Virus record (IMG/VR): IMGVR_UViG_3300033182_000473
Location: 1-47,516 of that record
Strand: one strand, 5' to 3'
Length of the DNA: 47,516 nt
From: a virus
The notes beneath the pieces are model-generated. The model saw nothing but the letters and a program-made list of their open reading frames with translations. It ran no database searches and was not told the DNA's origin. This document shows, one piece after another, positions 20,393-42,658 of the stretch (position 1 is its first letter; each line of letters opens with the position of its first letter). Made by a program: the position numbers and the translations under genes.

Positions 20393-21181
20393 CTATTTAT
20401 CGAATCTTTTACTTACAGCAGATCGTAAGCCCAGCCTCCTAAATTCGTTGTATAATAAACCAAACTTTCTATCAACTTCAAATTGTGGATTGTTAAAAGT
20501 GTAAACACTTTCATATGGCTGATGGGGTAAATCTTCTTCTAAACAGACTACTTCTACATCTCCGTGCCATCCTTGTACAAAACCTATGGCGTCTCTATAA
20601 TTGCTATAAGTAAGTTCCGCTACATAATCGAATTCTTTTTTAGTTATTTCGATTGTTTGTTTTTTTCTATCTGATCTGTACTTATTTGTTTTTTGAGCTG
20701 CCAATAGACTATATACTACTGCGGTATAATCTTTTCTAAACAGCAGGTAAACTTTATGTGTGTGTTTTAAAAGTTCGCTAATATCAGTGATGCCTTTATC
20801 TAAGAAATGATTAGGAAATGCTTTTACTACTCTTATGGTGTTTTTAGGATCGGTGTTATACCACCACTCCCACTCGGCAAACATCTGTTTGACACTAGCC
20901 CGTTTATGTTTGAGAGCTTCTGTTATTGCATCAGGTTCTTTATGTTTTAATTCCATTATTAAACCTTTAGATATATTAGCCCACCTTTCACCCATCAAAT
21001 GTATTTCTCCATACGGAGATACATGTATAGGATAAGGCATTTCTGGAGGAGATGTTAGCCACATCTTATCTCTTCCCTCAGGAGTATAGGCAAAATTTTC
21101 AAAATACTTTTTAGGTATTACAGCGTTTTGAAAATATGTAGATCCTGTTCTAGGAGAAGCCGCTAGTATGAGTATGTTCAT
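20393..21181 (-). CDS. Sulfotransferase-like protein
   Basis: This encodes 262 residues. The N-terminal P-loop-like ILAASPRTGSTYFQN (about residues 5-18) matches the 5'-phosphosulfate binding loop of PAPS sulfotransferases, and VYLLFRKDYTAVVYSLLAAQ matches the 3'-phosphate binding strand-helix with its Arg and Ser. Family members move sulfate from PAPS to sugars, lipids or proteins; the acceptor is unknown. The ATG 21181 has no SD and lies exactly 5 nt after a TATAAATA late box, predicting a leaderless late mRNA. Confidence 0.65.
   Translation of the reverse strand: MNILILAASPRTGSTYFQNAVIPKKYFENFAYTPEGRDKMWLTSPPEMPYPIHVSPYGEIHLMGERWANISKGLIMELKHKEPDAITEALKHKRASVKQMFAEWEWWYNTDPKNTIRVVKAFPNHFLDKGITDISELLKHTHKVYLLFRKDYTAVVYSLLAAQKTNKYRSDRKKQTIEITKKEFDYVAELTYSNYRDAIGFVQGWHGDVEVVCLEEDLPHQPYESVYTFNNPQFEVDRKFGLLYNEFRRLGLRSAVSKRFDK
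20394..20401 (-). promoter_or_regulatory. Late promoter box GATAAATA
   Basis: The minus strand reads GATAAATAG; the same bases encode the last codons Asp-Lys-stop of the sulfotransferase-like gene. It drives the EF-hand gene (ATG 20361), with AGGAG in the leader. Confidence 0.65.
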
Positions 21182-21186
21182 ACTAG

Positions 21187-21194
21187 TATTTATA
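21187..21194 (-). promoter_or_regulatory. Late promoter box TATAAATA, leaderless type
   Basis: An exact T4 late consensus lies on the minus strand, followed by CTAGT and then ATG 21181. If initiation occurs about 6 nt past the box, as in T4, the transcript starts at the A of ATG. Confidence 0.75.
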
Positions 21195-21202
21195 GAAACA
21201 AA

Positions 21203-21871
21203 TTATAACTTTTCTATAAACTTGATGCGGTTAAGCAAGGTTTCTTTGAAGCCTGTGTAGTTACTGACCTGCTGGCATTTTACATAAGCAGTTACGGAAT
21301 AGGTATTGTTTTGTTCCAACACACCTATGTTAGTTGATGTGGTCTGTGCAAAAAACTTAACAATGTTGCCATTACTGTTAGCAGTAACCAGATAACTACC
21401 AGTTCGAGGAATATACCTGATAAACTCGATGTCTAAATCGAATGTTCCTCGCTCATGCAAGTTGCCTACATAGTTGCTTTGTCTGCCCAATTGGTTCTCT
21501 CTGTCCTGCCAACCATCTGCTTCTAGTTTATTCAAATAAACTTTAGGAAGACTAGCGGCAATACCAATTGATTCTTTGCCAATTGATTCTGATTGAACAA
21601 ATTTAAGAACATTAGATTCGAAATCAGTAAGTTTGCGTTCTAGTGCTTTGAAGCCTAAGCCTTGAAGATAGTCAATGATTTCTTCTGCACGAGTGTGATC
21701 TTCATTGAGAACTTTTACGTCTTCGCCCTCAAAGAAATGTTTGTAGAGTAATGAGCTATTAGATTTTTTCTCTTTTCTTAGAACTTTATCGTCAACCTTT
21801 TTGAAAAATCCACCATTCAAACGATGAATTGCACAACTTGCGGCTACTACTAATTTTGTTGGGAATTGCAT
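21203..21871 (-). CDS. Unknown protein, possibly with a C-terminal OB-like beta domain
   Basis: This encodes 222 residues. The basic N-terminal part (FKKVDDKVLRKEKKSNSSLL) and helical middle (HTRAEEIIDYLQGLGFKALE) are followed by a strand-rich C-terminus (SYLVTANSNGNIVKFFAQTT; NTYSVTAYVKCQQVSNYTGF). The pattern of a strand with GN-x-V-K-F-F then a V-x-A-x-V-K strand and T-x-x-x-R resembles OB-like domains in phage replication proteins; this is a weak inference. It has an early promoter and good SD (GGAG). Confidence 0.55.
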   Translation of the reverse strand: MQFPTKLVVAASCAIHRLNGGFFKKVDDKVLRKEKKSNSSLLYKHFFEGEDVKVLNEDHTRAEEIIDYLQGLGFKALERKLTDFESNVLKFVQSESIGKESIGIAASLPKVYLNKLEADGWQDRENQLGRQSNYVGNLHERGTFDLDIEFIRYIPRTGSYLVTANSNGNIVKFFAQTTSTNIGVLEQNNTYSVTAYVKCQQVSNYTGFKETLLNRIKFIEKL

Positions 21872-21898
21872 GTTCTACTCTCCTTACCCTATACACAT

Positions 21899-21926
21899 AG
21901 TATAGCATCTTTTGTGGCTTTGTCAA
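21899..21926 (-). promoter_or_regulatory. Early promoter
   Basis: The minus strand has TTGACA (21921-21926), 16 nt, then TATACT (21899-21904). It drives the gene starting at 21871. Confidence 0.8.
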
Positions 21927-21936
21927 CCACTGTAAG

Positions 21937-22530
21937 TTACTGATTTATAATGATATTGTAAACTTCTTCCCAAGTTTTACATACATTTGCAGGGCCATCA
22001 TAATGCATATTGTGTCCATGCTCTATCAATATTCCCCTAAATCCAGCATCAATTCCCCAATCAACGTTTTGTGGCTTGTCTTCAATCCACCAGTTGTTGG
22101 GATATTTAGCACCATACTTTTTCAGTATTTCGTCTTTGTCAGCACCTGTGTCTAAACAAATAACTTCTTTAAAACAGTCTGGCCCAAATAGTTTTTTTAA
22201 GTTTTTCTTTCTAAGCTCTTGTGCATAAGGATCAAGGCTTAAACTGGTTATAGCAATAAATTGATATTGGTGTTTTTCATGTAAAAGTTTTACATAATAT
22301 TGAGCATCTCTGAGCGGAGGAAGAAATCCTATCGCCGCACTCTCGTTGAAGTTTTTAATAACTTGGTCGCCTGTTTTGTCGTTGGCTAAGTTAAACTTTT
22401 CTCTGATACTGTAATGTAATTTATGCCCTTCTACTGGATAATGGCCTCTGTGCTCCATCCAGTTCTCAAACGCATACTCCCAATCTAGAACTACGCCATC
22501 GCAGTCTGTAAATATAATTTTCTTTTTCAT
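21937..22530 (-). CDS. HAD-superfamily phosphatase (5'-nucleotidase-like)
   Basis: This encodes 197 residues from ATG 22530 (MKKKIIFTDCDGVVLDW); an ATG two codons earlier (22536) is also in frame. Motif I is FTDCDGVVLD, motif II FIAITSLS, motif III the Lys of TGADKDEILKKYG, and motif IV WWIEDKPQN. All core HAD residues are present, with a small cap. Phage copies often act on nucleotides or nucleic-acid ends. No SD is present, and the early promoter -10 ends exactly 6 nt before ATG 22530, so the mRNA is predicted to be leaderless. Confidence 0.8.
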   Translation of the reverse strand: MKKKIIFTDCDGVVLDWEYAFENWMEHRGHYPVEGHKLHYSIREKFNLANDKTGDQVIKNFNESAAIGFLPPLRDAQYYVKLLHEKHQYQFIAITSLSLDPYAQELRKKNLKKLFGPDCFKEVICLDTGADKDEILKKYGAKYPNNWWIEDKPQNVDWGIDAGFRGILIEHGHNMHYDGPANVCKTWEEVYNIIINQ

Positions 22531-22536
22531 ATCCAT

Positions 22537-22565
22537 ATTATACTAGATTTCCGTGTTATTGTCAA
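22537..22565 (-). promoter_or_regulatory. Early promoter, leaderless type
   Basis: The minus strand has TTGACA (22560-22565), 17 nt, then TATAAT (22537-22542). Counting -12 to -7 for the -10 box puts +1 at 22530, the A of the HAD gene ATG. Confidence 0.8.
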
Positions 22566-22573
22566 CCAAAAAG

Positions 22574-22581
22574 GTTAAATA
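22574..22581 (+). promoter_or_regulatory. Late-like box GTTAAATA, leaderless type
   Basis: The plus strand reads GTTAAATA, then GTATT, then ATG 22587. The spacing of 5 nt to the ATG equals that of the boxes before 21181 and 42645. The box is two bases from TATAAATA, so it is weaker. It lies back to back with the early promoter of the HAD gene. Confidence 0.45.
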
Positions 22582-22586
22582 GTATT

Positions 22587-23156
22587 ATGCAAACAATTAC
22601 TCTTTTTCCAGATATATTATACACAGGTATACTGCAAGTTAGTGCAAACATACACAGAAAAATTATCTCAAACATTGAAGAATTACAACAATCAGGTGCT
22701 TCAACTAACACACACTTTGGTTGGATTAGTAACCCTGATGTCCCTTTGAAGAACAATTTATCCAATCTTCAAATGCTTGTTGGTAGAACATTTGTAGATA
22801 ACATTTATAAATCTTTTGGAAAAAGATCTAATAAAAAGATTAATGCAGTACAACCTTACATTGCTAGTGTAAAACCCGACCATACTTATACGTTTGATGT
22901 AAATCCCAGTTATTGGTATAATGGAGTAATTTGGATCCAGACGACTGATAAAGGCAACTCCCTGTATATAGAAAATACTACTGGCAAAAGGTATACAACT
23001 CCATGGGTATTTCAGCCACCTACGCATATAGAAGAACCTGCAGAATATAAGTATGCATTTTGGCCTAGTTATTACAATGCAGGACTTACACCTAATTACA
23101 GCATGGTAGATACGTTAATGTTCAATATCGGATTTACATTTACTAAAGACAAATAA
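22587..23156 (+). CDS. Unknown protein, 189 residues, plus strand
   Basis: The sequence is strand-rich with many aromatic residues (KPDHTYTFDVNPSYWYNGVI; WIQTTDKGNSLYIENTTGKR). The order of a Trp/Tyr-rich strand, GNSLYIEN and a later FWPSYYNAGLT block recalls the jelly-roll core of phage 2OG-oxygenase-like proteins, but no HxD...H iron site is seen, so I leave it unassigned. It is in a two-gene plus-strand island ended by a bidirectional terminator and has no close SD. Confidence 0.6.
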   Translation: MQTITLFPDILYTGILQVSANIHRKIISNIEELQQSGASTNTHFGWISNPDVPLKNNLSNLQMLVGRTFVDNIYKSFGKRSNKKINAVQPYIASVKPDHTYTFDVNPSYWYNGVIWIQTTDKGNSLYIENTTGKRYTTPWVFQPPTHIEEPAEYKYAFWPSYYNAGLTPNYSMVDTLMFNIGFTFTKDK

Positions 23157-23168
23157 TAAGGAGACATC

Positions 23169-23270
23169 ATGTCAGACGAAAAGAAAACACAAACAACTTC
23201 CGGAGGCACTACTGACCGTCCAAACCATTCAGGCGATTCCGGAAATGGTAAAGGCACTGCTACTCATTAA
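23169..23270 (+). CDS. Very small hydrophilic protein, 33 residues
   Basis: ATG 23169 is preceded by AGGAG at 6 nt. The peptide starts MSDEKKTQTTSGGTTDRPNH and continues Gly/Ser/Thr-rich to GKGTATH, probably disordered. It lies 12 nt after the 189-residue gene and just before the terminator, so it is likely cotranscribed. Function unknown. Confidence 0.6.
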   Translation: MSDEKKTQTTSGGTTDRPNHSGDSGNGKGTATH

Positions 23271-23274
23271 GGTC

Positions 23275-23304
23275 AAAAAAAAGGGCAGTAATACTGCCCT
23301 TTTT
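23275..23304. terminator. Bidirectional rho-independent terminator
   Basis: A perfect GGGCAGT / ACTGCCC stem (23283-23289 with 23293-23299, loop AAT) is flanked by an A-run on the left and a T-run on the right. It therefore works for the plus-strand island and, in reverse, for the fibre gene converging from the right. Confidence 0.9.
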
Positions 23305-23319
23305 AGTATCTAATTAATA

Positions 23320-26300
23320 TTAGACGTAATTATAATGTACAGTGATTGTACCTGAACCTGCTGTGGTTGTGGCCGCTGTTGTGCCATCTGCCTGCATGAA
23401 CTGGACTTGTACTGAAGCATTTTTAGTAAGTGTATCATCACCATCTAATTCAATGATGTATGAACCAGCAGTTGCCGCATCTGCGTCAGCCGCCGCTACT
23501 AATGTTGATCCACTACCGCCATTCTCTTTAACAAGAATGTGGTTGAAAGAACCACCACTAAATGCTGTAGCAATCTTAATAACAATCTTATTAGCATAGT
23601 AAGTTCTGCCTGATACGTTTGGCATAGCCGATGTATCAATTGTTGTAGAACCACTTGTAAGTGCTTGTCTTAATAATAAGCCATCACCGCCGTTGTTATC
23701 AACATAGTCTTTAACAGCCGCTGATGTTGGTAAAGTAGTGTCATTATCATTACTGCTAATGCCGTCTGCTTCGTCAACAAACTTAGTGATTGCAATGCTT
23801 TCACCTGAGTCTGTCAATGTACCAAAACTTACATTACCTGTTAAGTCACCAGTTACATCACCAGTTACATCACCAGTTACATCACCAGTTACATCACCAA
23901 CAAGGTTGCCTACAAAAGAACCACTTGAGGTTACGTTACCGCTGAATGCACCAGTTGTTGCACCACTTAATGCACCACTACTTAAAGTAGCAGTTCCATC
24001 AGTTAAACTACCACCAGTTACTGCACCAGTCATAGTAGCAGTTGTACCACTAATACTACCAGTTACATCACCAGTTAAGTCACCTTCGAATGTTGCCGCA
24101 ACAAATGTCTCAGAACCAACTGACCACTTGCTTGTAGCACCAGTGTAAACAATCTGCTTGGCACTACCACCAACGTTGGCTTCAAAACCTACGTCAGTAC
24201 CAGTTGTACCGTTGCTGTTTACACGGAAGATTGCATCTGCTGTTTGAACAGTAGTTGAGTCCACAGTTGTCTGTGTACCTTGTACTGTTAAGTTACCTGT
24301 GATTGTTGCATCACCTGCAACTGTAACAGTAGATGAAGTAATGTCATCCGATGTAAATGTACCAGTAACAGTTAAGTTAGCAATACTTGCACCATCAACG
24401 ATACCAATTTCAACATTATTGTCAGTGATTGTAGTTTCGATTTGGTTAGTAGTACCAGCAAACGTTAATGTTTCACCACCTGCTACTGTGTCGTTACTAC
24501 CGTTATCGCCAGCAATGTCAAAGCCTGTGCTAACTGAAACGTTAGAAGCCGCTGTGATTCTACCCTGAGCGTCAACTGTGAAAGTTGGGATCTGAGTTGC
24601 TGAACCATAGTTGCCTGCTGTTACTGCTGTATTGTCTAAACCAATTGTAAGTGTTTGACCACTTGCATTTGATGTTAAACCTGTACCGCCAGCAATAGTT
24701 AATGATTGACTGTCTAAGTCAACTGCACCTGTACCGCTGTCACCTGCAAAATCTAAATCTTCTGCTGTAACTTTAGCGTCAACGTATGCTTTAACAGATT
24801 GTTGTGTTGGAATTAATGTATCACTGTCACTAGCCATGTTGTCTTCGTCAACAATACCAGTTACTGTGATTGTGCCATCACTTAATGAACCAAACTGTAC
24901 AGTACCACTTGCTGTAACATTGCTTGCACCAGTTAAATCACCGCTACTTAATGTTGCTGTACCGTCAGTTAAACTGCCACCTTGTACTGCGCCACTAAAT
25001 GTACCTGCTACACCACCTGTTAAGTTACCTGAACTTAAAGTTGCTGTACCATCAGTTAAACTACCACCTTGTACTGCACCACTTGCTGTGATGTTTACAG
25101 CAGATGTGATGTTACCAGAACCAATTGCTAACGTACCGTCAGTAAGTTGGTTACCAGTTACTGTACCACTAAATGAACCACTAGTTGCACCTGTTAATGC
25201 ACCACTACTTAAAGTAGCAGTTCCATCAGTTAAACTACCACCTTGTACTGCACCAGTTGCTGTAACACTTGTTAATGAAATATTGCCATCTAACGCAACA
25301 CTTAAACTGTTGTTAGACATTGTAGTAGTAATATTATTACCACCAACAAAAGCAACACTCTCACCGCCGTTTACAGTGTCAGAACCTGAATCGCCAGTAA
25401 ATGTGAAGTTAGTAGCAACTGCAACTGTACTTGCCGCTGTTAAACGACCTTGTGCGTCAACTGTAAATGTTGGAATTGCTGTAGCATTACCATATGATCC
25501 TGCTGTAACTGCTGTGTTGTCAAGGTCGATTGTACCTGAAGCGTATGTTAAACCAGTACCACCAGTAAGGTATGCGTCCATTGCCGCATTACCACGTGCT
25601 GTTGTCCAGTATAGGTTTGAACCTTCACTTAAATCGCCAGTGTCATGGTTAGCAATACTACTTACTGTACCAGTTACATCACCAGTTACATCACCTGTTA
25701 AGTCACCTTCAAAAGTTGAAGCCTTAACATTTTCAGAACCGAAGTCCCATTCTGTTCCAGCCGCTGTGTAAAGAATTTGTTTTACACCACTTGCAGTGTT
25801 TGCTTCGAAACCAGCGTCAGTGTTTGCACCATTGCTATTTGTTCTGAAGATAGCATCTGCTGTTTGAACTGTTGTGGATTCAACTGTTGTTTGAGTACCT
25901 TGTACTGTTAAGTTACCTGTGATAATTGCATCACCACTAACTGTAACAGTAGATGAAGTAATATCATCACTTGTAAATGTACCACTTACTGTTAAGTTAG
26001 CAATTTGTGCGCCATCAACGATACCAACTGCTACTTGGTTATTAGTAATAGTTGTTTCTGTTTGGTTAGCAACACCAACAATGCTCAAAGTCTCACCAGT
26101 GTTAACTGTGTCGTTTGAACCATTGTCGCCTGCAATATCAAAACTTGTTGCAATCGCCGCAGTACTTGTTGCAGTAATACGTCCTTTGCTGTCGATAGTT
26201 AACACAGGAATCTGTGTAGCACTACCTACTGAGCCTGCTGTAACACCAGTATTTGCTAGTGTAACAGAAATGTTTGCTTGGTCACCTGCACTTGTAAAAG

Positions 26301-26898: not shown

Positions 26899-26966
26899 GT
26901 TTGTTCTCCTAATACATGTATTTTATTTGTTATCGATAACGTGAAGATTTCTCCTGACGTTGTAAG

Positions 26967-26974
26967 TATTTATC
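26967..26974 (-). promoter_or_regulatory. Late promoter box GATAAATA
   Basis: The box lies 68 nt upstream of the 1192-residue fibre gene ATG (26898). The leader contains the palindromes TTATCGATAA (26930-26939) and AATACATGTATT (26911-26922), the latter just before AGGAG. Confidence 0.65.
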
Positions 26975-26990
26975 AGAATTTTAGAAAATT

Positions 26991-29003: not shown

Positions 29004-29011
29004 TCTGGTCT

Positions 29012-33016: not shown

Positions 33017-33018
33017 AC

Positions 33019-33483
33019 TTAAACAGATTCTAATCTTTTCATCAGTCTTTCAGCACGTTTTGTAACTTGACGATACCACTTAGAATCTCTACCTTCCACT
33101 GCGGCACGTTTCCAATCTTGTTCTTCTAATGCTTTTCGAAAGTTTTTAAATCCGCCTAATCTTGTACGACCCATATTGAACATCATGTTTACAAGTACTT
33201 CTTGTACTTCTCCGGGCCATTCATTAAACTGATCTCCGTATAGAGCAACACACTCACTAATTGCGGTGTCAAGGTCACGTTCAAAGACTTCTGCCACTCT
33301 TTGCTCAGATACGGGAGTTCCAACCGGTTGACCATGTTCTGGATCCCCTTCAATGACCAAATGTCCGACTCCGAATGTTGGCAAGCCAAGGTGGTCGAGG
33401 TAAACTTCATTTACTACACCTTCGTCGATCTTTAATTGTTCAAATACTGCTTCTCTATCCAATTTATCTTTTTTAAAAAACAT
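33019..33483 (-). CDS. T4-type lysozyme (GH24 endolysin)
   Basis: This 154-residue muramidase cleaves the MurNAc-GlcNAc bond of peptidoglycan. The catalytic start LKIDEGVVNEVYLDHLGLPT holds the Glu-Asp-Thr triad in the T4 lysozyme order, followed by FGVGH. The C-terminal NMMFNMGRTRLGGFKNFRKA and DSKWYRQVTKRAERL match the helical lobe. Length is near T4 lysozyme (164 aa). No signal peptide, so it needs a holin, none of which is certain here. It could alternatively be a baseplate-associated lysozyme. Confidence 0.88.
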   Translation of the reverse strand: MFFKKDKLDREAVFEQLKIDEGVVNEVYLDHLGLPTFGVGHLVIEGDPEHGQPVGTPVSEQRVAEVFERDLDTAISECVALYGDQFNEWPGEVQEVLVNMMFNMGRTRLGGFKNFRKALEEQDWKRAAVEGRDSKWYRQVTKRAERLMKRLESV

Positions 33484-33484
33484 T

Positions 33485-34174
33485 TTATCTCTCTAAGTTT
33501 TTATATACTATTACTTTATATTTGTCACGCACAAATTGTTTATAATTTAAAAGTAACATAGTTAATACATGCTCATAATCATACTCTTTTAAATAGAGAT
33601 AATTGTGATACATGCGTTTTTGCTTACGTGGCTTCTCATGCCACTTATAGTCCGATGTTTGTGCTGATATTAATTTATCTATATCACAAAACACATTACC
33701 ACTACTTGTATTTATATCATGAATAGAATAAAACTTACTAAAGTCAATTTTATAATGATATTTGTTATAATATAGTTTGTCTCTCAACTCTTCTTGATAC
33801 AATAAATCTTGTGTTTCTCCTAGGAGCACAGAAATATGGTTGTCGCTTACAGGACCTCTAACTTGTACGACATGATCATGCCAAGCAGTTACAAATTCTT
33901 TTAACGAATCAAAGTCTTGAAAGTAAAATGATCTACCTTTATTACTCCAGTAGTGTCTCCATTTTGTAACGATATTGTTACATATCCACATGCTTATTTC
34001 ATCGTGCAATTCAATGTCATGATAAATGTAGGCGCCATCAACTGTTGCTTTATAAAGATATTCATCAAAGTAAATTCTATTACTAGGTTTGATAGGTACG
34101 TTTAAGTCCCTACCGTCTAGAAGAACAATACTATTCCTGTTCAGCAACTGCAAGTTCAAACAGATACTCCTCAT
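33485..34174 (-). CDS. Unknown protein next to the ClpA-like gene
   Basis: This encodes up to 229 residues rich in Tyr, His and Lys (HDIELHDEISMWICNNIVTK; KIDFSKFYSIHDINTSSGN). The start is uncertain. ATG 34174 has no SD, whereas TTG 34159 follows AGGAG at 7 nt; both lie inside the end of the ClpA-like gene. No recognised domain. It lies between the unfoldase and lysozyme genes. Confidence 0.55.
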   Translation of the reverse strand: MRSICLNLQLLNRNSIVLLDGRDLNVPIKPSNRIYFDEYLYKATVDGAYIYHDIELHDEISMWICNNIVTKWRHYWSNKGRSFYFQDFDSLKEFVTAWHDHVVQVRGPVSDNHISVLLGETQDLLYQEELRDKLYYNKYHYKIDFSKFYSIHDINTSSGNVFCDIDKLISAQTSDYKWHEKPRKQKRMYHNYLYLKEYDYEHVLTMLLLNYKQFVRDKYKVIVYKNLER

Positions 34175-36335
34175 TAAAATCTATAACAATCTTAGTATTC
34201 TGTAGATCATCGAATAATATTTTTCTACTTAGAGGCTTTTTAATGCTTTCTTCAAACACTCTTTTTAGTGGCCTTGCACCCATGCTAGGTTGATAGCCAT
34301 CTTCTGCAAGTTGCTGTCGAGCTTTATCAGTAAGTTCGATTACATTGTACGATTCGTTTTCAGTTAACAGTTTGTTAGTTTCCTGAACTAACCTATCCAC
34401 AATCAACAACATAAGTTCTTGTGATAATTTGTTAAATTTAACCACAGCATCAAGCCTGTTTCTAAATTCTGGTGTAAAGAACCTTTCAATTGCTTTTTCT
34501 ACTTCTTTAGTTTTTGCTTGATCTCCAAACCCGATCTTAAGAGTTTCACTGTCAGCGGCACCCAAGTTAGAAGTCATCAGCAACACAACATTACTAAAGT
34601 CTACAACTTTTCCTGTTGCACCAGTTAATTTACCATCGTCCATAATTTGCAACAATACGTTTAATACTTCTGGTGCGGCTTTTTCTACCTCGTCTAGCAA
34701 TAAGATACAGTTAGGATTTTCTTCTACTTCAGCAAGTAATTGTCCTTGGCCCATCTTGCCTTCTGCATGGCCAACATAGCCTGGAGGAGCACCAATCAAT
34801 TTGCTCACACTGTGTCTTTCCATATACTCCGACATGTCGAACTTGATCAGTTTACTTTCCATGTTGCTGGCTAATGCTCTAGCAGTTTCAGTTTTACCTG
34901 TACCTGTTGGGCCTACGAAAAGAAATGTACCGATAGGTTTATTCTTTTCTCGTAGTCCTGCTTTAGCAACTAGTATGCTTTCTACAATACGATCTACTGC
35001 TTCATCTTGGCCGTATACCTGCTTTTTAATTCTTGCATCTAAATTTTGATATCCATCTTTCTTTTCAACGTCTACTAAATTAGCATTTACTTTAGAAATT
35101 TTACTTACAATCTGAATAACATCAGATAGTTGTACATCTTTGTTGCCTGCTAATTTTACTTTAGCACCAACAGCATCCACAACATCTAATGCTTTATCAG
35201 GAAAGTATTTGTTTTTAATATATCTATCAGTGAGATCTACAATCTTATCTAAGATCTCATCAGTGTATGACACAACATGAAACTTTTCGTAATACTCTTT
35301 TAAACCTCTACAAATTTCTTTTGTGTCCTCTACGCTGGTTTGCTGGATATCTAACCTAGCAAATCTACGCATCAATGCTCTGTCTTTTTCGAAACTGTTA
35401 GCAAACTCATCCGGTGTGGTTGCGCCGATTGTGAGCAGTTTACCTTTACCCAGTACTGGTTTGATCATGTTAGCAACATCAACTGCGCCACCACCTGTAC
35501 TTCCAGCACCCATAATCATATGAATTTCATCGATGAACAAAATAGTATTTGGATTATCGCTAAGTACCTCGAGTACCATTTTGAGACGCTCTTCAAAGTC
35601 ACCTCTATATCGTGTACCTGCTAATAAATCTCCAACACTTAAACTGTAAACAACTTTGTTACGCAACATAGGTGGTACTTGCTCGTCAACAATTCTTTTA
35701 GCAAGGCCTTCAGCAATAGCAGTTTTACCTACGCCTGGTTCCCCTACAATAACCACATTATTCTTTTTGCGTCTTGCAAGGATATGCACAAGGTCATCTA
35801 CTTCTTGCTCTCTACCAATCAGTGGATCAATCTTATGTTTTAATGCTTCTTCATTTAGATTAGTAGTGTACTCCTCAATTAGTTCTGCACTTTTTGCAGT
35901 CCTAAACTTTTGGTCAATATGATCAACGATCATGTTTCTGTCTAAGCCATTCATTTCACAGTAATATTTGGCATAGCTCTCATCTTCTGAAAGAATGCTT
36001 ACAAACAAATCAAGCGGCTGTATTTCATCTCTACCACTAAAAATAACTTGTGCGAGAGCACGTTGTATAATACGGTCAACAGATTGTGTTTTCTTAGGGG
36101 CACCTTTTAATCCGTTAGCAGAAAATAGGCCGTTAAAATCATTGTTTTCTAAAAAGTCGTTGAGATCTTTTTCAATCCTGTCGCCGTCTATTTGCAAATC
36201 AGCCAACACTTTTTTAATCTTATTAGACTCTAGCAAACAAACAGTAAGATGTTCCACAGTCATATATTCATGCTGTAATGTTTCTGCTTTTAGTACAGCA
36301 TTTTGAATAATTGTATCTATGTGTTTACTTTCCAT
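34131..36335 (-). CDS. clpA: ClpA-like AAA+ protein unfoldase
   Basis: This encodes 734 residues: an N-terminal Clp domain ([14 protein letters not shown]), D1 Walker A GEPGVGKT (198-205) with Walker [14 protein letters not shown], and D2 Walker A GPTGTGKT (475-482) with [11 protein letters not shown]. There is no ClpB middle coiled coil, so it is of ClpA/ClpC type. D2 contains IGF at 601-603, just before [10 protein letters not shown], the position of the ClpP-docking IGL/IGF loop. It may redirect host ClpP or act alone as a chaperone. It overlaps dnaJ by 11 nt. Confidence 0.88.
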
Positions 36336-37152
36336 TATTACCTCGTTTCTCTCTAATTGTATTTAAAACTTTAATTATTTCTTCATCATGTATAGTGGGC
36401 ACTTCGATATGTGCAATAGCAATTAAGTCTCCCGCCATCGATGTATTTGGATTAGGGAACCCTAAGCCTCTCATTTTTATTTTTTGATTTTGTTGGCACC
36501 CTGCAGGAACTTTTACTCTATACTGCTTACCATTAATGTGTTCTATTGTTACTTCAGTTCCCGTTACAGCATCTAGTGCATCTACACCTATGCGTACATA
36601 TAAATTGTTTCCTTCTTTATTCCACTCAGGAGGGAAATCTAATCTAACTTGAATCATTAGATCGCCTGGGGGTAGTTGTTGAAAACGTTGATATCCCTTA
36701 CCGGGTATTCTATAAGTATCGCCATCTCCTGTGCCTGCAGGAACTTTAAAATTTACTGCGCCACTAGGAGTGTTTATAATATATTCGTTACCAAAATATG
36801 CATCTCGAAGAGATATAGTTATGCTGACACGTTGATCTGGATTTCTTACAGGGTGTTGGCGTTGTCCAAATATATCTCCAAATATATCAGCAAAGGGACT
36901 ACCCTGACCAGAAAATGGATCACCACCTTGTCTAAAATTAAATTCAAAGCCTTCGCCAAATGGACTTGGATTATCATACTGAGCACGTTTTTGTGGATCA
37001 CTTAAGGTTTCGTATGCTTCTTGAACTTTTTTAAACTGTGCTTCGTCGCCTCCCTTGTCAGGGTGATGCTTGCCTGCTAATTTTCTATAGGCTTTTTTAA
37101 TTTCAGAGGCGTCAGCATCCCGGCTTACGCCCAAAGTTTCATAGTGATCCAT
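36325..37152 (-). CDS. dnaJ: DnaJ-type J-domain co-chaperone
   Basis: This 275-residue class II (CbpA-like) Hsp40 has the J-domain [20 protein letters not shown] with the HPD motif ([10 protein letters not shown]), a G/F-rich linker ([20 protein letters not shown]) and two C-terminal substrate-binding domains ([40 protein letters not shown]). The class I zinc finger is absent. It would stimulate host DnaK. Its early promoter -10 ends exactly 6 nt before ATG and there is no SD, so the mRNA is predicted leaderless. It is cotranscribed with the ClpA-like gene. Confidence 0.92.
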
Positions 37153-37158
37153 AGTGTA

Positions 37159-37186
37159 ATTATAGCAGGAATCTGCTGTTTGTCAA
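37159..37186 (-). promoter_or_regulatory. Early promoter of dnaJ-clpA, leaderless type
   Basis: The minus strand has TTGACA (37181-37186), 16 nt, then TATAAT (37159-37164). Six bases separate the -10 from ATG 37152, so +1 coincides with the ATG. An inverted repeat AGCAG-GAAT-CTGCT (37164-37177) fills the spacer and could be an operator. Confidence 0.85.
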
Positions 37187-37191
37187 TAAGT

Positions 37192-37422
37192 TTATGAAAG
37201 GTCTTGGATCAGTTTTATAAGATCGCTAACAGTCTCTATACTGTCTATTTCAGTATCATCAATTTCAATTTCAAATTCTGTCTCAATTTCCATTACGATT
37301 TCAACAACGTTTAAACTGTCTGCACCTAAATCTTCAACAATTTTGTGGCTGTCTAAAATTTCAAATCCATGCCGAAGACCTAATGCATGTCTTAGAACTC
37401 CGTGTAATGTATCTTTAATCAT
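37192..37422 (-). CDS. acpP: Acyl carrier protein
   Basis: This 76-residue protein has the acyl carrier fold: an acidic four-helix domain with the phosphopantetheine site LGADSLNVVE (Ser36), the same residue number as in E. coli AcpP, followed by the recognition helix VVEIVMEIETEFEIEIDD. It would need the host holo-ACP synthase. It sits at the end of the late operon after the spanin genes and overlaps the lipoprotein gene by 8 nt. Its role in a phage is unknown; acylation of a lytic or membrane protein, or takeover of host lipid synthesis, are possibilities. Confidence 0.88.
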   Translation of the reverse strand: MIKDTLHGVLRHALGLRHGFEILDSHKIVEDLGADSLNVVEIVMEIETEFEIEIDDTEIDSIETVSDLIKLIQDLS

Positions 37423-38152
37423 TTGTATTTGATAAGCCTGGTATTAATTTTTGTAAACTAAATCCGGAATCCTGCGTTACAGGTTCTTGATATTGAGATT
37501 CGTTATTAGCCTCTTCTTCTGCACGTTGATTATTTTGCCTTTCTGCGTTTTCTTCTAACCAACCGTCTATACCTTTTGGTGCTGTTGCTTCTCTATAGTA
37601 GTAAATTATATCTTTCTGCTGATTGATATATCTTTTTATTTCTTGCAGATTTGCGGCCAATTTTTCATAGCCTACTGGAGTAACTGCGAATACAACAAAC
37701 TCGCCATCTAACATAGTTTCTATTTCCGCTATTTTTTGTTGTAAGTTACCGCATGACTCGATGCCGTTGCCATTCTCGTCAAGTAATTGTGGACGTTCTA
37801 CTCTGTTCCCTGCTTCGTCTCTTTGGACTCTTCTTTTTGTTTCGCCTGTTGCTTCGTCAACATATTCTTCATAAGCAAATCTATCTGTGGTGTAGTACCA
37901 CTTGCCGCCGCTACCCCTAATTGTTTCTTTACCTGTTGCTGGTTTACAAGGTGTGTTAGTTATAACCTTCCAGTCGACATCTGACAGAGCAATTTCTCTT
38001 GGTAAGGGTGGCTGATAAATTTCTACTTCAACAGTTTCTGTGATAACCTTTACAGGAGGTAGAGGTTGATAAGGTTGTTGCATAGTAGAGCAAGCACCTA
38101 ATGTTAAGGCCAAGCCAACTAATGCTAAATTTTTAATCGTCTTGTGGCTCAT
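37415..38152 (-). CDS. Lipoprotein, probable outer-membrane spanin
   Basis: This encodes 245 residues. The signal sequence MSHKTIKNLALVGLALTLGA ends in a lipobox with Cys21 (LGAC). The mature part starts Pro-rich (QQPYQPLPPVKVI), as in o-spanins, then a Cys-containing domain (two more Cys), a helix (NLQQKIAEIETMLDGEFVVF) and a polar tail. The gene directly upstream encodes a membrane-anchored coiled-coil protein with which it would span the periplasm. It is longer than classical Rz1, so the spanin assignment is moderate. Confidence 0.55.
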   Translation of the reverse strand: MSHKTIKNLALVGLALTLGACSTMQQPYQPLPPVKVITETVEVEIYQPPLPREIALSDVDWKVITNTPCKPATGKETIRGSGGKWYYTTDRFAYEEYVDEATGETKRRVQRDEAGNRVERPQLLDENGNGIESCGNLQQKIAEIETMLDGEFVVFAVTPVGYEKLAANLQEIKRYINQQKDIIYYYREATAPKGIDGWLEENAERQNNQRAEEEANNESQYQEPVTQDSGFSLQKLIPGLSNTND

Positions 38153-38567
38153 TGTTTAGTTCCTCTATCTCTCTGCTGTCTGCTTCAACACTATCGAAAA
38201 CTGCTCGAGTAGCATCGTTTGCTTGTCTTTCTATTGTATCTGGTCTCAGTCTTGCAAGTCTAGTAAAGTTATGGTTAGCAAAAATACTCATATATTCTTT
38301 TGCTTGATCTTCCCATTCGCTTGCCGCTGTTGTAAGTTGAGTTATTTGTTCTACTTGTTGTTTTGCTCTGGCTTCCATATTTCTAATGGTTGCTTCGTTT
38401 TGCTCTGCCGCACTTTGTAGAGCAACGTTTTGTTGATTTAAGGTATCAATTTGTCTTTGCTGGACTTCAATTTGTGTTTCTAAACGGTTAACAATCCATA
38501 TATGACTGCCGTACGCCAAACCGCCTAAAAGTAAAATAAGTGGTAATGCTCTTAATATTCCTAACAT
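38133..38567 (-). CDS. Probable inner-membrane spanin (Rz-like)
   Basis: This encodes 144 residues: one N-terminal membrane segment (ALPLILLLGGLAYGSHIWIV), then a long coiled coil (QRQIDTLNQQNVALQSAAEQ to EQITQLTTAASEWEDQAKEY) and a C-terminal segment HNFTRLARLRPDTIERQAND as in Rz-type i-spanins, which disrupt the outer membrane at lysis. It overlaps the lipoprotein gene by 20 nt, the usual spanin-pair arrangement. Confidence 0.6.
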   Translation of the reverse strand: MLGILRALPLILLLGGLAYGSHIWIVNRLETQIEVQQRQIDTLNQQNVALQSAAEQNEATIRNMEARAKQQVEQITQLTTAASEWEDQAKEYMSIFANHNFTRLARLRPDTIERQANDATRAVFDSVEADSREIEELNNEPQDD

Positions 38568-39349
38568 TGTTTAGTTACCAGTATGTTTTCTGTAACAGCA
38601 GGATTAAAAATTACAATATAATTATCAATTGGAACTGCTTTCATTTCGCCTAACATACTGTTAAATACTCTGAGTGTGCTGTCCAATGGTTTGATTGCAC
38701 TTTCGTTGATGCCTAATTCTGCCATTATATCTTTTGCAGGACCAAAGTTAACCACTTCTAGGGTAGCAATGTTCTTTGCTCCTCGCATATGAATTTTGTT
38801 ATCTGTAATACCTGCCTCTAAAAGGTCACTGCCTTTTAAAAATTCTAAAATAGTATTGCTATTTTCTTCTGCCTGTTCTTGCAGTGCTTTCTCTTCTGCT
38901 TCCGCTTGTTCATTTGCAAGTTGTGCTTTGAACTCGCTTGCAGTTAAATATGTATCCGGGTCACTTTGCATATACTTGATAAGTTGTGGATTATTTAATT
39001 CAATCAATTCTTCCACGTAAGGAAATTTGAATTCCCATTTTAACTTGCCTGTGACATTCTCAACTTCTTTTAAAATTGCTTGTATGTTTTGTAGCAAGTT
39101 CTCATCTCTATCCATCTCGACAAATACCATATAGTATCCGTCTGTGTTCGGGTTAGGGGATAACTCTATGTCTCTGTTTTCAACAACAGAACCATTTATA
39201 AAATTATATAAATCTGTACCTGGGTAATCTTGTACAACGCTGAATCCCATAACAGCAACATCTTTTTCGTCGCCTGTCTTAGGAGTAAACTCGTCGATGC
39301 TAACAGTTTTTAGAACTGTGTCTTTTAAATCGCCTTCTCTAAGTGCCAT
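38561..39349 (-). CDS. Unknown late protein, 262 residues
   Basis: The start ATG 39349 shares its A with the upstream stop (TAATG). An N-terminal beta region (DEKDVAVMGFSVVQDYPGTD; YYMVFVEMDRDENLLQNIQA) is followed by a strongly alpha-helical Glu/Ala-rich stretch (EFKAQLANEQAEAEEKALQE) and a C-terminal alpha/beta region. No enzyme motif. It is second in a late-promoted operon that runs into the spanin pair, so a virion or lysis-accessory role is likely. Confidence 0.6.
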   Translation of the reverse strand: MALREGDLKDTVLKTVSIDEFTPKTGDEKDVAVMGFSVVQDYPGTDLYNFINGSVVENRDIELSPNPNTDGYYMVFVEMDRDENLLQNIQAILKEVENVTGKLKWEFKFPYVEELIELNNPQLIKYMQSDPDTYLTASEFKAQLANEQAEAEEKALQEQAEENSNTILEFLKGSDLLEAGITDNKIHMRGAKNIATLEVVNFGPAKDIMAELGINESAIKPLDSTLRVFNSMLGEMKAVPIDNYIVIFNPAVTENILVTKQC

Positions 39350-39915
39350 TACAGTGCCGCTCCTGTTGCAGGATCTATGTTTGGTGTTGGAACTGCTACT
39401 TCTGTAGCATCATTTACCTGCATGTCTGCAGAACTGTTAATGTCATCCATATCAACATATGACTCTTCATCAACTTCTACATTATTCATATCAAATTCGT
39501 CAACATATCTGCGTGGCATTTTAACTTTAACCAACCAAACAGGTTCTGAATCTGTTTTGGCTTTGTATCTTTGTGTACCATCAGGTCTTGCTTCTACAAC
39601 TACATCATCAAACGACTTGATCTGTCTAGGTGTTATTAATGTATCTTTTTTGTAATCAACTAAAATGTCTCTACCCATTAATCTTTTAGCACCACTAGGA
39701 TCAGGCATTTTTTTGTAAGGATACATCAAAACTACTTCTAAAAAGTGTCTGCTGAGTTTAGGCCCGTATAGGACTTCACCTTGTTCCCAATTTTTAAATG
39801 CATAAAGATCTACTTTGTCTAAAACTTTTTCAAACTCTAATAGCATATCTAATAGAGAATTAGTTTCAGATACTTTCTTAATGCTGTCGTTTAACATTTT
39901 TACTGATATAGTCAT
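39349..39915 (-). CDS. Unknown late protein, 188 residues
   Basis: The start is ATG 39915 (MTISVKMLNDSIKKV), with AAGGAG at 6 nt and a late promoter just upstream; a longer frame to 40023 would run through the promoter. The protein has a helical start, a YPYKKMPDPSGAKRLMGRDI middle and an acidic disordered tail. No recognised domain. It is the first gene of the operon that ends with the acyl carrier protein. Confidence 0.6.
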   Translation of the reverse strand: MTISVKMLNDSIKKVSETNSLLDMLLEFEKVLDKVDLYAFKNWEQGEVLYGPKLSRHFLEVVLMYPYKKMPDPSGAKRLMGRDILVDYKKDTLITPRQIKSFDDVVVEARPDGTQRYKAKTDSEPVWLVKVKMPRRYVDEFDMNNVEVDEESYVDMDDINSSADMQVNDATEVAVPTPNIDPATGAAL

Positions 39916-39932
39916 ACTATCTCCTTCATAAC

Positions 39933-39940
39933 TATTTATC
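39933..39940 (-). promoter_or_regulatory. Late promoter box GATAAATA
   Basis: GATAAATAGTT on the minus strand, 17 nt before ATG 39915, with AAGGAG in the leader. It lies in the divergent region shared with phoH. Confidence 0.65.
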
Positions 39941-39962
39941 AAAGTATAATCAACTGTGTTTA

Positions 39963-39990
39963 TTGATATGATACCTGTGTTAAATATTAT
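39963..39990 (+). promoter_or_regulatory. Early-type promoter facing phoH
   Basis: The plus strand has TTGATA (39963-39968), 16 nt, then TATTAT (39985-39990), one mismatch per hexamer and the same 16-nt spacer as the other early promoters. It would start at about 39997, upstream of a terminator. Confidence 0.6.
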
Positions 39991-40035
39991 TGTAATGAAT
40001 AAAATTATTACAAAAGACATCACAAAAAATGAACC

Positions 40036-40069
40036 AAACCGTAGAGGCGGAGCCTTTTACGGTTTTTTT
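40036..40069 (+). terminator. Rho-independent terminator or attenuator in the phoH leader
   Basis: The arms AAACCGTA (40036-40043) and TACGGTTT (40058-40065) pair perfectly, with an inner AGGC-GGA-GCCT hairpin, followed by a run ending in seven T. It lies between the plus-strand promoter and the AGGAGG of phoH. It could limit phoH expression or define a ~73-nt RNA. Confidence 0.8.
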
Positions 40070-40089
40070 ATGGCTCACAGGAGGCACCA

Positions 40090-40848
40090 ATGTCCAGAAA
40101 AGCTCGTAAAGAAAAATGCAACAAATACAGAAAACAACAATTCCAACAGGAGGGTAATTTGAGAGTAATACAAGGCGGAGCACTAGCCCGCAAGCGACAG
40201 ACACAAATAAACATAGTACCAAGAAACTTTAATCAAGACGATCTATTAGGTTACTTAGAAGATCGCAACATCAATATAGTTTTTGCTATTGGCCCTGCAG
40301 GCACAGGCAAAACACTTATTTCAACATTAGCAGGTATTAAAAAACTAAAAGGAGGTGATGTTAACAAGTTAGTAGTTACTCGTCCTGCTGTAAGTGTTGA
40401 CGAACAACACGGCTTCTTGCCAGGAACATTACAAGAAAAAATGGCTCCGTGGACAAGACCAATCTTTGATGTGTTCGAAGAATATTATTCCCCAGATCAG
40501 ATAGAGTATATGCTTAATGACAATAAAGTCGAAGTAGCACCTCTAGCATACATGCGTGGTAGAACATTCAAAGATGCGTGGATTATTGCAGACGAAATGC
40601 AGAATGCCACAGATAATCAAATGAAAATGTTATTAACAAGAATAGGCCATGGTTCTAAACTTGTTGTTACAGGCGACTTAGATCAGCACGATAGGGGTTA
40701 CGAAGAAAATGGTCTCAAGATGTTTATTGAACGTTTAGCAAAAGTAAATTCAGAAAGAATTAAACTTGTAGAATTTACTAAAGGAGACGTTGAAAGACAT
40801 CCTATTGTAACCGAAGTGTTAGATATATACAACTCTAAAGCGAGTTAA
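40090..40848 (+). CDS. phoH: PhoH-like ATPase
   Basis: This 252-residue P-loop protein is common in marine phages. Walker A is FAIGPAGTGKT, the conserved segment KLVVTRPAVSVDEQHGFLPG follows, Walker B is WIIADEMQNAT and sensor-like VVTGDLDQHD. PhoH proteins are linked to phosphate stress and RNA/ribosome metabolism, but the phage role is unsettled. ATG 40090 has AGGAGG 5 nt upstream. A second AGGAGG 5 nt before in-frame TTG 40159 could give a shorter form lacking the basic N-terminus. Its last 14 nt overlap the convergent radical SAM gene. Confidence 0.93.
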   Translation: MSRKARKEKCNKYRKQQFQQEGNLRVIQGGALARKRQTQINIVPRNFNQDDLLGYLEDRNINIVFAIGPAGTGKTLISTLAGIKKLKGGDVNKLVVTRPAVSVDEQHGFLPGTLQEKMAPWTRPIFDVFEEYYSPDQIEYMLNDNKVEVAPLAYMRGRTFKDAWIIADEMQNATDNQMKMLLTRIGHGSKLVVTGDLDQHDRGYEENGLKMFIERLAKVNSERIKLVEFTKGDVERHPIVTEVLDIYNSKAS

Positions 40849-42331
40849 TATATTTTTGTTTGCGAACAATATAATTACCAATATGTTGATCGCCTAACGC
40901 CAACCAGATAGCAGAGTACATTTCATTTGGTCTTTCGCTGAGCATTTGAGTGTACCCTGCTTTTTGTGTGATATCAAACATATCTACTAATCCTAATGCA
41001 TCTCTACTGATTGCTTCCCATGGATCTATAGTAGTTATTTTATTCTTTAAATTATTACTAGCAAGCCGTTTAGCAAGTTGGGAGGCCTCACGTTTGGTCA
41101 TCAAGTCATGTTTCCAATTTAAATTGGTAGGGTCTCCACCTAACACTGTAATGCCAAATTTATTTGGATCTCTACTAAAGTCACTATAATTATCTTCATT
41201 ACCAGGTATGTTATATAAGCCTAAGTCAACTGGTATAATTGCATCAAGTGCTCGACGCCTTTGTATTTCCTGCATTACATCAATTATGTGTTCCTTTGGT
41301 TCTTTAGGTAACCCAACAATATAACCTGAACACATGTGCCAATGAGGGTATGTTGTTGAAAGAAACTCTAAGTAATCTAATGCTTCTGCTCTTGGTGCTG
41401 TCTTACGAATTACTTTACTTGCTTCGGGGTGTAAAGTTTCTATGCCGAAATAGTGACCGACAAACCCTGCTCTATTTAATTTATCTGCTTGATGTTTTTT
41501 ACGCATCATTATATCAAAACGATTGTAGCCTACAATCTTGGGTTTATAATCTAATTTATCTACAGCATTTAATAATGTATCTATCTTGCTATCGTCCTCG
41601 TTAAAAGTATCATCTACTGTGCTGAATCGTGTAATATTATATTTTGAATTTGCTGTTTTGAAAAAATTATACAAGCATTTAGAGTTAGTATCATTTGTTT
41701 CTTTTGCATTACGAAACTCAAATGTACAGAATGTACAGTTAAACTTGCAACCTAAGCGAACTTCAAATTGCAATACATCTTTGTTAGTCAAGCAATAGTC
41801 ATCATGTAATATGGGCACAATAGGATCTTCTACTACAACATTAGATGCGTTGTAGTATCTAGTAATACCGTTAACCTTAGATTTATGTTCTATAGGATCG
41901 TTTCCTGTGAGCCATTGTTCGAACAAATGTAGGCTCCTACCTTGGAAAACTGCGTCAGGTATGTGCCCATTTAGATCGTAATCTACTAGATTTATTGGGC
42001 CACCCACAAGCAAAGTTACATCAAATTTCTGTTTTAAAAGTGTAATAAGAGTAGTAATATTGCTGTTGCTATCTAATACATTTGTGTTAAAAAGGGTGCT
42101 ACAAGCAACTGTAATGCGTTTTAAGCGGTTCTTTTCGCACCATAGTGCCAAAGTATCACATAATACATCAGTTTTCCAAAAAGATGCATAATTTATCACA
42201 GTGCTAGGAATATTGTGCTTAACACATACATCATGCAAGCCAAAAGGTGCTAACGGTCTAATAATATGACTGCGGAGTGTTTGTTGTCTATTATCTGTAT
42301 TGGTACAGTCTAGAATTATTACGCCATGCAT
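40835..42331 (-). CDS. Radical SAM protein with an N-terminal B12-binding-like domain (copy 1)
   Basis: This encodes 498 residues. Residues ~1-145 form a Rossmann-like domain (TLLVGGPINL; VFQGRSLHLFEQWLTGND) like the cobalamin-binding domains of B12-radical SAM enzymes, but no DxHxxG motif is seen. The radical SAM core starts RLGCKFNCTFC (C195, C199, C202) and continues FSTVDDTFNE, FGIETLHPEASKVIRK and GYIVGLPKEPKEH. It is paralogous to 42654-44102 throughout. It may methylate or otherwise modify a protein, RNA or lipid; the substrate is unknown. Start coupled by TAATG to the small gene upstream. Confidence 0.75.
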   Translation of the reverse strand: MHGVIILDCTNTDNRQQTLRSHIIRPLAPFGLHDVCVKHNIPSTVINYASFWKTDVLCDTLALWCEKNRLKRITVACSTLFNTNVLDSNSNITTLITLLKQKFDVTLLVGGPINLVDYDLNGHIPDAVFQGRSLHLFEQWLTGNDPIEHKSKVNGITRYYNASNVVVEDPIVPILHDDYCLTNKDVLQFEVRLGCKFNCTFCTFEFRNAKETNDTNSKCLYNFFKTANSKYNITRFSTVDDTFNEDDSKIDTLLNAVDKLDYKPKIVGYNRFDIMMRKKHQADKLNRAGFVGHYFGIETLHPEASKVIRKTAPRAEALDYLEFLSTTYPHWHMCSGYIVGLPKEPKEHIIDVMQEIQRRRALDAIIPVDLGLYNIPGNEDNYSDFSRDPNKFGITVLGGDPTNLNWKHDLMTKREASQLAKRLASNNLKNKITTIDPWEAISRDALGLVDMFDITQKAGYTQMLSERPNEMYSAIWLALGDQHIGNYIVRKQKYINSL

Positions 42332-42645
42332 TAGTAAATCTTTCGTAAGTCATAGCCTACTGGATTTACCACTTTGATTTCATGTCGAACGCCCAGTAAG
42401 TCTACGAATATTATATGTAAATTAGTTAGTTTGATAACTTTTTTGGCACGATAAGTTTTTGGTGAACTTGAATCTATTCGTGTACCGTCTGGAAGAAATT
42501 TTGTTTCGCCTGGGAAGAAAATAGTGAGCTCCCACTCTTCGCGCCATAATGTACGCCACCAGTGTTTGATTTTAGACCAAATAGAAACTTTAACAAGTTT
42601 TTCTTCTTGTTTCTGTATTACTTCTGGTTCTTTCTTCTCAGCCAT
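42331..42645 (-). CDS. Small unknown late protein between the two radical SAM genes
   Basis: This encodes 104 residues: a charged N-terminus, a Trp-rich basic helix (WSKIKHWWRTLWREEWELTI) and a beta C-terminus ending GYDLRKIY. No known motif. A late box sits exactly 5 nt before ATG 42645 and there is no SD, predicting a leaderless late mRNA. Its stop overlaps the start of the downstream radical SAM gene, making it a candidate partner or substrate; alternatively it is simply a virion protein. Confidence 0.6.
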   Translation of the reverse strand: MAEKKEPEVIQKQEEKLVKVSIWSKIKHWWRTLWREEWELTIFFPGETKFLPDGTRIDSSSPKTYRAKKVIKLTNLHIIFVDLLGVRHEIKVVNPVGYDLRKIY

Positions 42646-42650
42646 AATAG

Positions 42651-42658
42651 TATTTATC
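42651..42658 (-). promoter_or_regulatory. Late promoter box GATAAATA, leaderless type
   Basis: GATAAATA, then CTATT, then ATG 42645. The TAA stop of the upstream radical SAM gene (42654-44102) is inside the box. Confidence 0.7.

What the first reader, a model, noticed from the sequence alone, without database searches (positions are those of the whole stretch)
21181..42658. A set of predicted leaderless genes with fixed promoter-to-ATG spacing
Five genes lack an SD, and their ATG falls at the predicted transcription start. Early type: HAD (22530) and dnaJ (37152) each have TATAAT exactly 6 nt before ATG. Late type: sulfotransferase-like (21181, TATAAATA), 104-aa protein (42645, GATAAATA) and the plus-strand gene (22587, GTTAAATA) each have the box exactly 5 nt before ATG. 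Repeated identical spacing across two promoter classes suggests deliberate use of leaderless initiation, perhaps favoured when host translation is altered.
Basis: partly seen in the sequence, partly recalled or inferred. Interest (0 to 1): 0.7.

Follow-up and report, generated by a model that had tools for sequence, protein, structure and literature searches.

The report
Phage genes whose messages lack leaders
In a large group of uncultured, mostly marine viruses of bacteria, many genes begin exactly where their messenger RNA is predicted to begin, with no ribosome-landing leader, under both early and late promoters; this is a real, evolutionarily conserved pattern that the model phage T4 does not show.

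Summary
All five genes have the box, spacing and ATG at the stated coordinates and no Shine-Dalgarno (SD). The pattern is not chance. In about 1.6 Mb of related IMG/VR contigs, late boxes followed by 5 nt and ATG gave 67 distinct sites, 58 opening ORFs of 60 or more codons; sigma-70 promoters followed by 6 nt and ATG gave 27, 18 open. Controls (+1 = ATA, other spacings, random ATGs) are open 9-25% of the time. None of these 76 starts has an SD, against 174 of 215 starts 17-33 nt from the same boxes. The base before the late leaderless ATGs is a pyrimidine in 58 of 58 (44% at SD-led ATGs). Orthologs keep the geometry: the plus-strand gene in 12 of 13, down to 21% identity. T4, Syn9, KVP40, phiM12, Cr30 and Phosso lack the late class; pelagiphages HTVC008M and Mosig have it, at annotated gene starts. 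Best reading: a real leaderless expression class shared by host-type early and T4-type late promoters. The idea that it responds to altered host translation has no support here. No RNA 5' ends were available, so the TSS is predicted.

The parts
22528..22565 (-). Early leaderless promoter-start unit of HAD/NT5C-like gene: TTGACA (22565-22560), 17 nt, TATAAT (22542-22537), 6 nt, ATG (22530-22528)
   Evidence: orthologs in L018/G005, G014, G018, G030, L085 keep TATAAT-6-ATG
21937..22530 (-). HAD-superfamily / 5'(3')-deoxyribonucleotidase-like protein, 197 aa from the +1 ATG
   Evidence: PHROG 420 E 2.9e-40 for the 199-aa form from 22536; Pfam NT5C E 1.2e-4 for the 197-aa form, below its cut-off
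37150..37186 (-). Early leaderless promoter-start unit of dnaJ: TTGACA (37186-37181), 16 nt, TATAAT (37164-37159), 6 nt, ATG (37152)
   Evidence: orthologs: 5 distinct early k=6, 3 early k=8, 2 late k=5, Atu_ph07 scored SD-led on a weak AAGG match
36325..37152 (-). DnaJ (J domain from residue 2, plus C-terminal domain), 275 aa
   Evidence: Pfam DnaJ E 2.3e-25, DnaJ_C E 1.6e-42; the J domain starting at residue 2 supports the +1 ATG as true start
21179..21194 (-). Late leaderless unit: TATAAATA (21194-21187), 5 nt CTAGT, ATG 21181
   Evidence: same geometry in L008 (near-identical upstream DNA) and in divergent L016, AATAAATA-5-ATG
20393..21181 (-).
42643..42658 (-). Late leaderless unit: GATAAATA (42658-42651), 5 nt CTATT, ATG 42645; the box overlaps the stop codon (42654-42656) of the upstream gene
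   Evidence: ortholog in G015 keeps it (36% id), orthologs in G009/G010 have the same box with a ~15-nt SD leader
42331..42645 (-). 104-aa protein of unknown function
   Evidence: no Pfam/PHROG match
22574..22589 (+). Late leaderless unit: GTTAAATA (22574-22581), 5 nt GTATT, ATG 22587
   Evidence: 12 of 13 distinct orthologous upstream regions have a late box exactly 5 nt before ATG
22587..23156 (+). 2OG-Fe(II)-oxygenase-fold protein, 189 aa
   Evidence: AlphaFold2 pLDDT 84; PDB matches to PHD2 and other 2OG oxygenases, best E 3e-8; cyanophage 2OG oxygenases in BFVD; weak Pfam 2OG-FeII_Oxy_5 in 3 of 9 homologs
22531..22586 (.). 56-bp divergent intergenic region: minus-strand early promoter and plus-strand late box back to back; -35 and late box 8 nt apart
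   Evidence: reverse-complement -35 (GTCAA) 8-9 nt from the late box read by eye in many orthologs (sequences)
44100..44117 (-). Near-leaderless late start of radical-SAM gene (GTTAAATA, 7 nt, ATG 44102); orthologs in G015 and G034 have the late box exactly 5 nt before ATG
12046..12084 (-). Near-leaderless early start (TTGACA...TATAAT, 8 nt, ATG 12048); orthologs have 7-8 nt

Best explanation
These genes are transcribed as truly leaderless mRNAs. Early genes use a host-type sigma-70 promoter, and late genes a T4-type (gp55-class) TATA box. In both, RNA polymerase starts on the A of the ATG, so the message begins 5'-AUG and is initiated by direct ribosome binding to the 5'-terminal AUG rather than through an SD. 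The promoter thus also sets the translation start: once the box is placed 5 or 6 nt before an ATG, no leader is needed, and box and start can overlap the previous gene's stop or share a 56-bp divergent spacer. About a third of late promoters with a detectable gene (58 distinct leaderless against 117 leadered) and fewer early ones are built this way; the rest have leaders, mostly with an SD. Genes switch between the two forms over evolution. Shown by sequence: boxes, spacing, ORFs, absence of SD, conservation. Inferred: the exact TSS, the sigma factor, ribosome mode, and a host whose ribosomes accept leaderless mRNA, probably an alphaproteobacterium.
For: Fixed spacing spikes at k=5 (late) and k=6 (early) in 1.34 Mb of relatives. 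ORF test with dedupe: 58 of 67 and 18 of 27 open against 9-25% in controls; Fisher p 1e-16 (late) and 3e-6 (early) against +1 ATA. SD 0 of 76 leaderless against 174 of 215 leadered. Pyrimidine at -1 in 58 of 58 late leaderless starts against 44% of SD-led ATGs, p 3e-19; SD-led late promoters carry the same box and A at the same +1 (61%) but +3 = A (73%), so AUA rather than AUG. Start codon is ATG; GTG/TTG at k=5 are 3 and 0 against 50 in the [ATG]ATAAATA set. 44 gene families. Ortholog conservation. In Pelagibacter phages HTVC008M and Mosig all 8 and all 6 k=5 ATGs coincide with annotated CDS starts, including tail tube, tape measure, baseplate and DNA end protector genes. In a wider IMG/VR sample 78 of 99 distinct k=5 sites are open against 27 of 90 at k=6.
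Against: No mapped 5' ends for any of these phages. gp55 was not found in the fragments, which cover only part of the genome. Upstream read-through mRNAs may also cover genes inside operons, such as the 104-aa gene. Some orthologs are SD-led. Some k=7-8 early starts would carry 1-2 nt leaders unless the start site shifts. The host is unknown.
Confidence: 0.86

Rival explanations
1. Coincidence of promoter initiator preference: the start site favours GT|AT, and some of these by chance read ATG; genes actually start elsewhere.
For: ATA is also enriched at +1 of both promoter types, and 9 of 27 early +1 ATGs open only short frames.
Against: ORFs after +1 ATG are open in 87% (late) and 67% (early) of cases against about 10% after +1 ATA; no SD; homologous proteins align from this Met; annotated starts agree in pelagiphages.
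Confidence: 0.04
2. Transcripts start further upstream, and translation uses a non-SD, A/U-rich leader (bS1-assisted) or coupling to the previous gene; the box near the ATG is an extra or inactive promoter.
For: Genomes are compact and many genes lie in runs on one strand; some boxes overlap the previous stop (104-aa gene).
Against: The single-nucleotide spacing spike and the 100% pyrimidine at -1 make sense only if transcription starts on the A. The divergent HAD and 2OG genes have only a 56-bp spacer with one promoter each.
Confidence: 0.08
3. Leaderless design is a regulatory response: phage or host modifies ribosomes during infection (bS21 exchange, MazF-type trimming, SD-cutting RegB), so that leaderless messages are favoured late.
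For: Pelagiphages HTVC008M and Mosig encode bS21; E. coli has a MazF leaderless pathway (cited in PMC3616915).
Against: Atu_ph07 has bS21 but only one late k=5 ORF; no RegB; early genes are also leaderless; SD-led late genes coexist; orthologs interchange.
Confidence: 0.07

Closest known systems
Bacterial leaderless genes with a -10 (TANNNT) about 12 bp before the start codon (Zheng et al. 2011, PMC3160421)
   Same: Early class: TATAAT with 6 nt to ATG, no SD, no 5' UTR; same logic of detection.
   Different: Here in a phage with near-consensus TTGACA/TATAAT, and a second, non-sigma-70 promoter class does the same.
T4 late promoters (gp55/gp33/gp45 dependent; PMC2988020) and late promoters of T4-like cyanophages
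   Same: Eight-base TATA box about one helical turn upstream of the start, AT-rich downstream.
   Different: In T4, Syn9 and KVP40 no late box is followed by ATG at 5 nt with an ORF of 60+ codons; their genes lie mostly 17-30 nt downstream. Here about a third of late promoters with a detectable gene are fused to the ATG.
Lambda cI from PRM, the classic leaderless phage mRNA (own knowledge; cited in PMC9031893 and PMC3160421)
   Same: Phage message beginning with AUG.
   Different: A single lysogeny gene in lambda; here dozens of gene families under both early and late promoters.
Alphaproteobacterial leaderless transcripts (Caulobacter 375, PMC4117421; S. meliloti 171, PMC3616915)
   Same: TSS at the A of AUG, no motif needed; probable translation background of the hosts.
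   Different: Host genes; phages of cultured soil and freshwater alphaproteobacteria (phiM12, Cr30, Phosso, nearly all of Atu_ph07) do not show the late class.

Membership tests
[quoted passage not shown]
   No RNA data; predicted from box spacing and from the -1 pyrimidine / +1 A pattern
Leaderless genes (bacterial lmRNA class) | Promoter -10 element at fixed short distance to the start codon | tested here: met
   Spikes at 6 nt (early) and 5 nt (late)
Leaderless genes (bacterial lmRNA class) | No Shine-Dalgarno | tested here: met
   0 of 76 against 174 of 215 leadered controls
Leaderless genes (bacterial lmRNA class) | AUG start codon rather than GUG/UUG | tested here: met
   ATG 50, GTG 3, TTG 0 at late k=5, [ATG]ATAAATA set
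T4-type late promoters | 8-bp TATAAATA-like box about one turn upstream of the start | tested here: met
   GATAAATA/TATAAATA/GTTAAATA, same box in leaderless and SD-led late genes
T4-type late promoters | Phage encodes late sigma gp55 (with gp33, gp45) | tested here: inconclusive
   gp55 found in Atu_ph07, HTVC008M and Syn9 but not in the family fragments; gp33 and gp45 not searched for
Polybotosvirus-like (Atu_ph07) jumbo myoviruses | Conserved gene content around DNA polymerase, Clp protease, DnaJ, PhoH, clamp loader | tested here: met
   gp43 43-47% identical to Atu_ph07 and Phosso; the same genes in one stretch of Atu_ph07
Polybotosvirus-like (Atu_ph07) jumbo myoviruses | Whole genome of about 450-500 kb | not testable with these tools
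   Only a 47.5-kb fragment is held

The most novel reading that the evidence does not exclude
In phages of marine alphaproteobacteria, T4-type late promoters are fused to start codons as a standing expression class that follows the host rather than the phage lineage. It is present in a Kyanoviridae branch on Pelagibacter and in marine Atu_ph07-like phages, but absent from their relatives on cyanobacteria and nearly absent from those on soil bacteria; the third base of the transcript (AUG or AUA) separates leaderless from leadered promoters.
Probability: 0.4. Interest if true: 0.75.

Novelty: new variant of a known kind. Interest (0 to 1): 0.62.

Why it matters
Leaderless phage mRNAs are textbook exceptions (lambda cI). 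Here they form a regular class over dozens of gene families, including core virion genes of cultured Pelagibacter phages, with the late promoter and start codon fused at single-base precision. Gene callers and promoter maps of environmental T4-like phages should allow for it. Orthologs that alternate between leaderless and SD-led forms give a natural test of what selects one form over the other, and HTVC008M or Mosig on Pelagibacter HTCC1062 is a cultured system in which it could be tested at once. In the papers searched I found no report of leaderless late genes in T4-like phages (a limited library).

Tried and rejected
Chance and composition: rejected by the reversed-pattern control (0 hits in 40 relatives), the spacing curve and the +1 ATA control. 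Phage-encoded initiator tRNA: the CAT tRNAs in relatives have a paired G1-C72, so they are not initiators and look like elongator Met or Ile2. RegB-escape idea: no RegB outside T4. bS21 idea: does not track the trait. Host assignment: one Rhodobacteraceae MAG contig with a related polymerase (51% identity) carries a GATAAATA-5-ATG site, but binning is weak evidence; in an alphaproteobacterial class sample the sigma-70 6-nt pattern gave 13 hits against 2 for a 9-nt control, suggestive only. Late sigma gp55: not in the fragments.
Full report
What was claimed and what is there. All five are as described. HAD reads TTGACA-17-TATAAT-6-ATG and dnaJ TTGACA-16-TATAAT-6-ATG. The sulfotransferase-like gene, the 104-aa gene and the plus-strand gene have TATAAATA, GATAAATA and GTTAAATA, each 5 nt before ATG. 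None has an SD. For HAD the mechanical ORF starts at 22536, but that ATG lies between the -10 box and +1 and cannot be in the message; 22530 is the +1 ATG.

What the window is. It is a 47.5-kb linear fragment of a T4-like phage whose DNA polymerase is closest among cultured phages to Sinorhizobium phage Phosso and Agrobacterium phage Atu_ph07 (43-47%). The same genes (polymerase, Clp protease, DnaJ, PhoH, clamp loader) lie in one stretch of Atu_ph07. About 80 IMG/VR loci share the polymerase at 67-98% identity, and 30 of their contigs were read at length.

Is it more than chance? Across these contigs the distance from late box to ATG shows one sharp spike at 5 nt and a broad hump at 17-33 nt, with almost nothing between; sigma-70 promoters show the same with the spike at 6 nt. 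After removing related copies, 67 late and 27 early sites remain; 58 and 18 open frames of 60 or more codons. ATA at the same position, ATG at other spacings, and random ATGs open frames in 9-11%, 23-25% and 18%. This control matters because the initiation site itself prefers GT|AT. The 76 open sites have no SD at all, against 79% (late) and 84% (early) of the 17-33-nt leadered genes from the same boxes. At the late sites the base before ATG is always a pyrimidine (58 of 58; 44% in SD-led genes), the usual -1/+1 preference of RNA polymerase. Leadered late promoters have the same box and an A at the same +1, but A instead of G at +3. I take these together as strong indirect evidence that transcription starts on the A of ATG.

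Conservation. The plus-strand gene keeps a late box exactly 5 nt before ATG in 12 of 13 distinct orthologous upstream regions, down to 21% protein identity; dnaJ is leaderless early in five, has 8 nt in three, and is late-leaderless in two. HAD and the 104-aa gene alternate between leaderless and SD-led forms. The leaderless proteins fall into 44 families. So leaderlessness is kept for long times in some genes and exchanged in others.

How wide is it? T4, Syn9, KVP40 and phiM12 have no late k=5 ORF and Atu_ph07 has one; Phosso, Cr30 and Vibrio phage 2.275.O have no matching DATAAATA-5-ATG string at all. Pelagibacter phages HTVC008M and Mosig, which are Kyanoviridae and so on a different branch, have 8 and 6 such sites, and every one coincides with an annotated gene start, among them tail tube, tail tube cap, tape measure, baseplate wedge and DNA end protector. 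The trait is therefore wider than this family, and two unrelated groups share it. Host tracking fits these points but rests on few cultured phages.

Mechanism. Most likely these are true leaderless mRNAs translated by direct ribosome binding to the 5'-terminal AUG, a mode known in bacteria (review PMC9031893) and common in alphaproteobacteria (PMC4117421, PMC3616915). Fusing the late box to the ATG saves the leader and lets box and start overlap a neighbouring gene. In the 56-bp space between HAD and the 2OG-oxygenase gene the early -35 and the late box are only 8 nt apart, so binding of the late polymerase should cover the early promoter; that would give an early-to-late switch (inference).

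Side findings. The gp43 leader carries a covarying hairpin before the SD, similar in place and role to the T4 gp43 translational operator (PMC3014915); in relatives without it the polymerase is leaderless, has a 2-nt or 14-19-nt leader, or follows a 5-7-codon leaderless micro-ORF whose TGA overlaps the polymerase ATG in 8 of 8 distinct sequences.

Limits. No RNA data; gp55 not in the fragments; host unknown; promoter calls rest on consensus boxes; the literature search covers only open-licence papers.

Noticed in passing
window 18455-18495 (minus strand), and leaders of gp43 in L012, L014, L015, L021-L023, L027, L028, L037, L042, L046, L062, L068, L079: Conserved hairpin GGYRTTG[CT]GNCAGCC-loop-TGNYGCTYGGAG just before the SD of DNA polymerase gp43; 6-bp stem, 100% of cells paired, 3 pairs with compensatory changes. 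Looks like a gp43 translational operator with a loop unlike T4's UAAC.
   Followed up: partly
L039, L041, L044, L045, L047, L048, L050, L052 upstream of gp43: Where the hairpin is lost, a 5-7-codon micro-ORF starts exactly at the predicted +1 of a sigma-70 promoter and ends in a TGA that overlaps the polymerase ATG (ATGA) in 8 of 8, with leader lengths 17 or 20 nt: possible leaderless leader peptide coupled to gp43.
   Followed up: partly
window 22531-22586: Divergent early and late promoters 8 nt apart, with the spacing 8-9 nt in many relatives; binding of the late polymerase may occlude the early promoter.
   Followed up: partly
   Followed up: yes
window 5845-6729 and 7241-7930: QueE-like radical SAM protein and GTP cyclohydrolase, suggesting 7-deazaguanine (queuosine-type) synthesis, perhaps for DNA modification.
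   Followed up: no
L113, L116, L119, L128, L168: Relatives carry tRNA-Met/Ile2(CAT), Arg, Leu, Asn, Trp, Ala, Glu and Ser genes; the CAT tRNA is not an initiator.
   Followed up: partly
HTVC008M 91237-91392, Mosig 9983-10132, Atu_ph07 489120-489257: Phage-encoded ribosomal protein bS21.
   Followed up: partly
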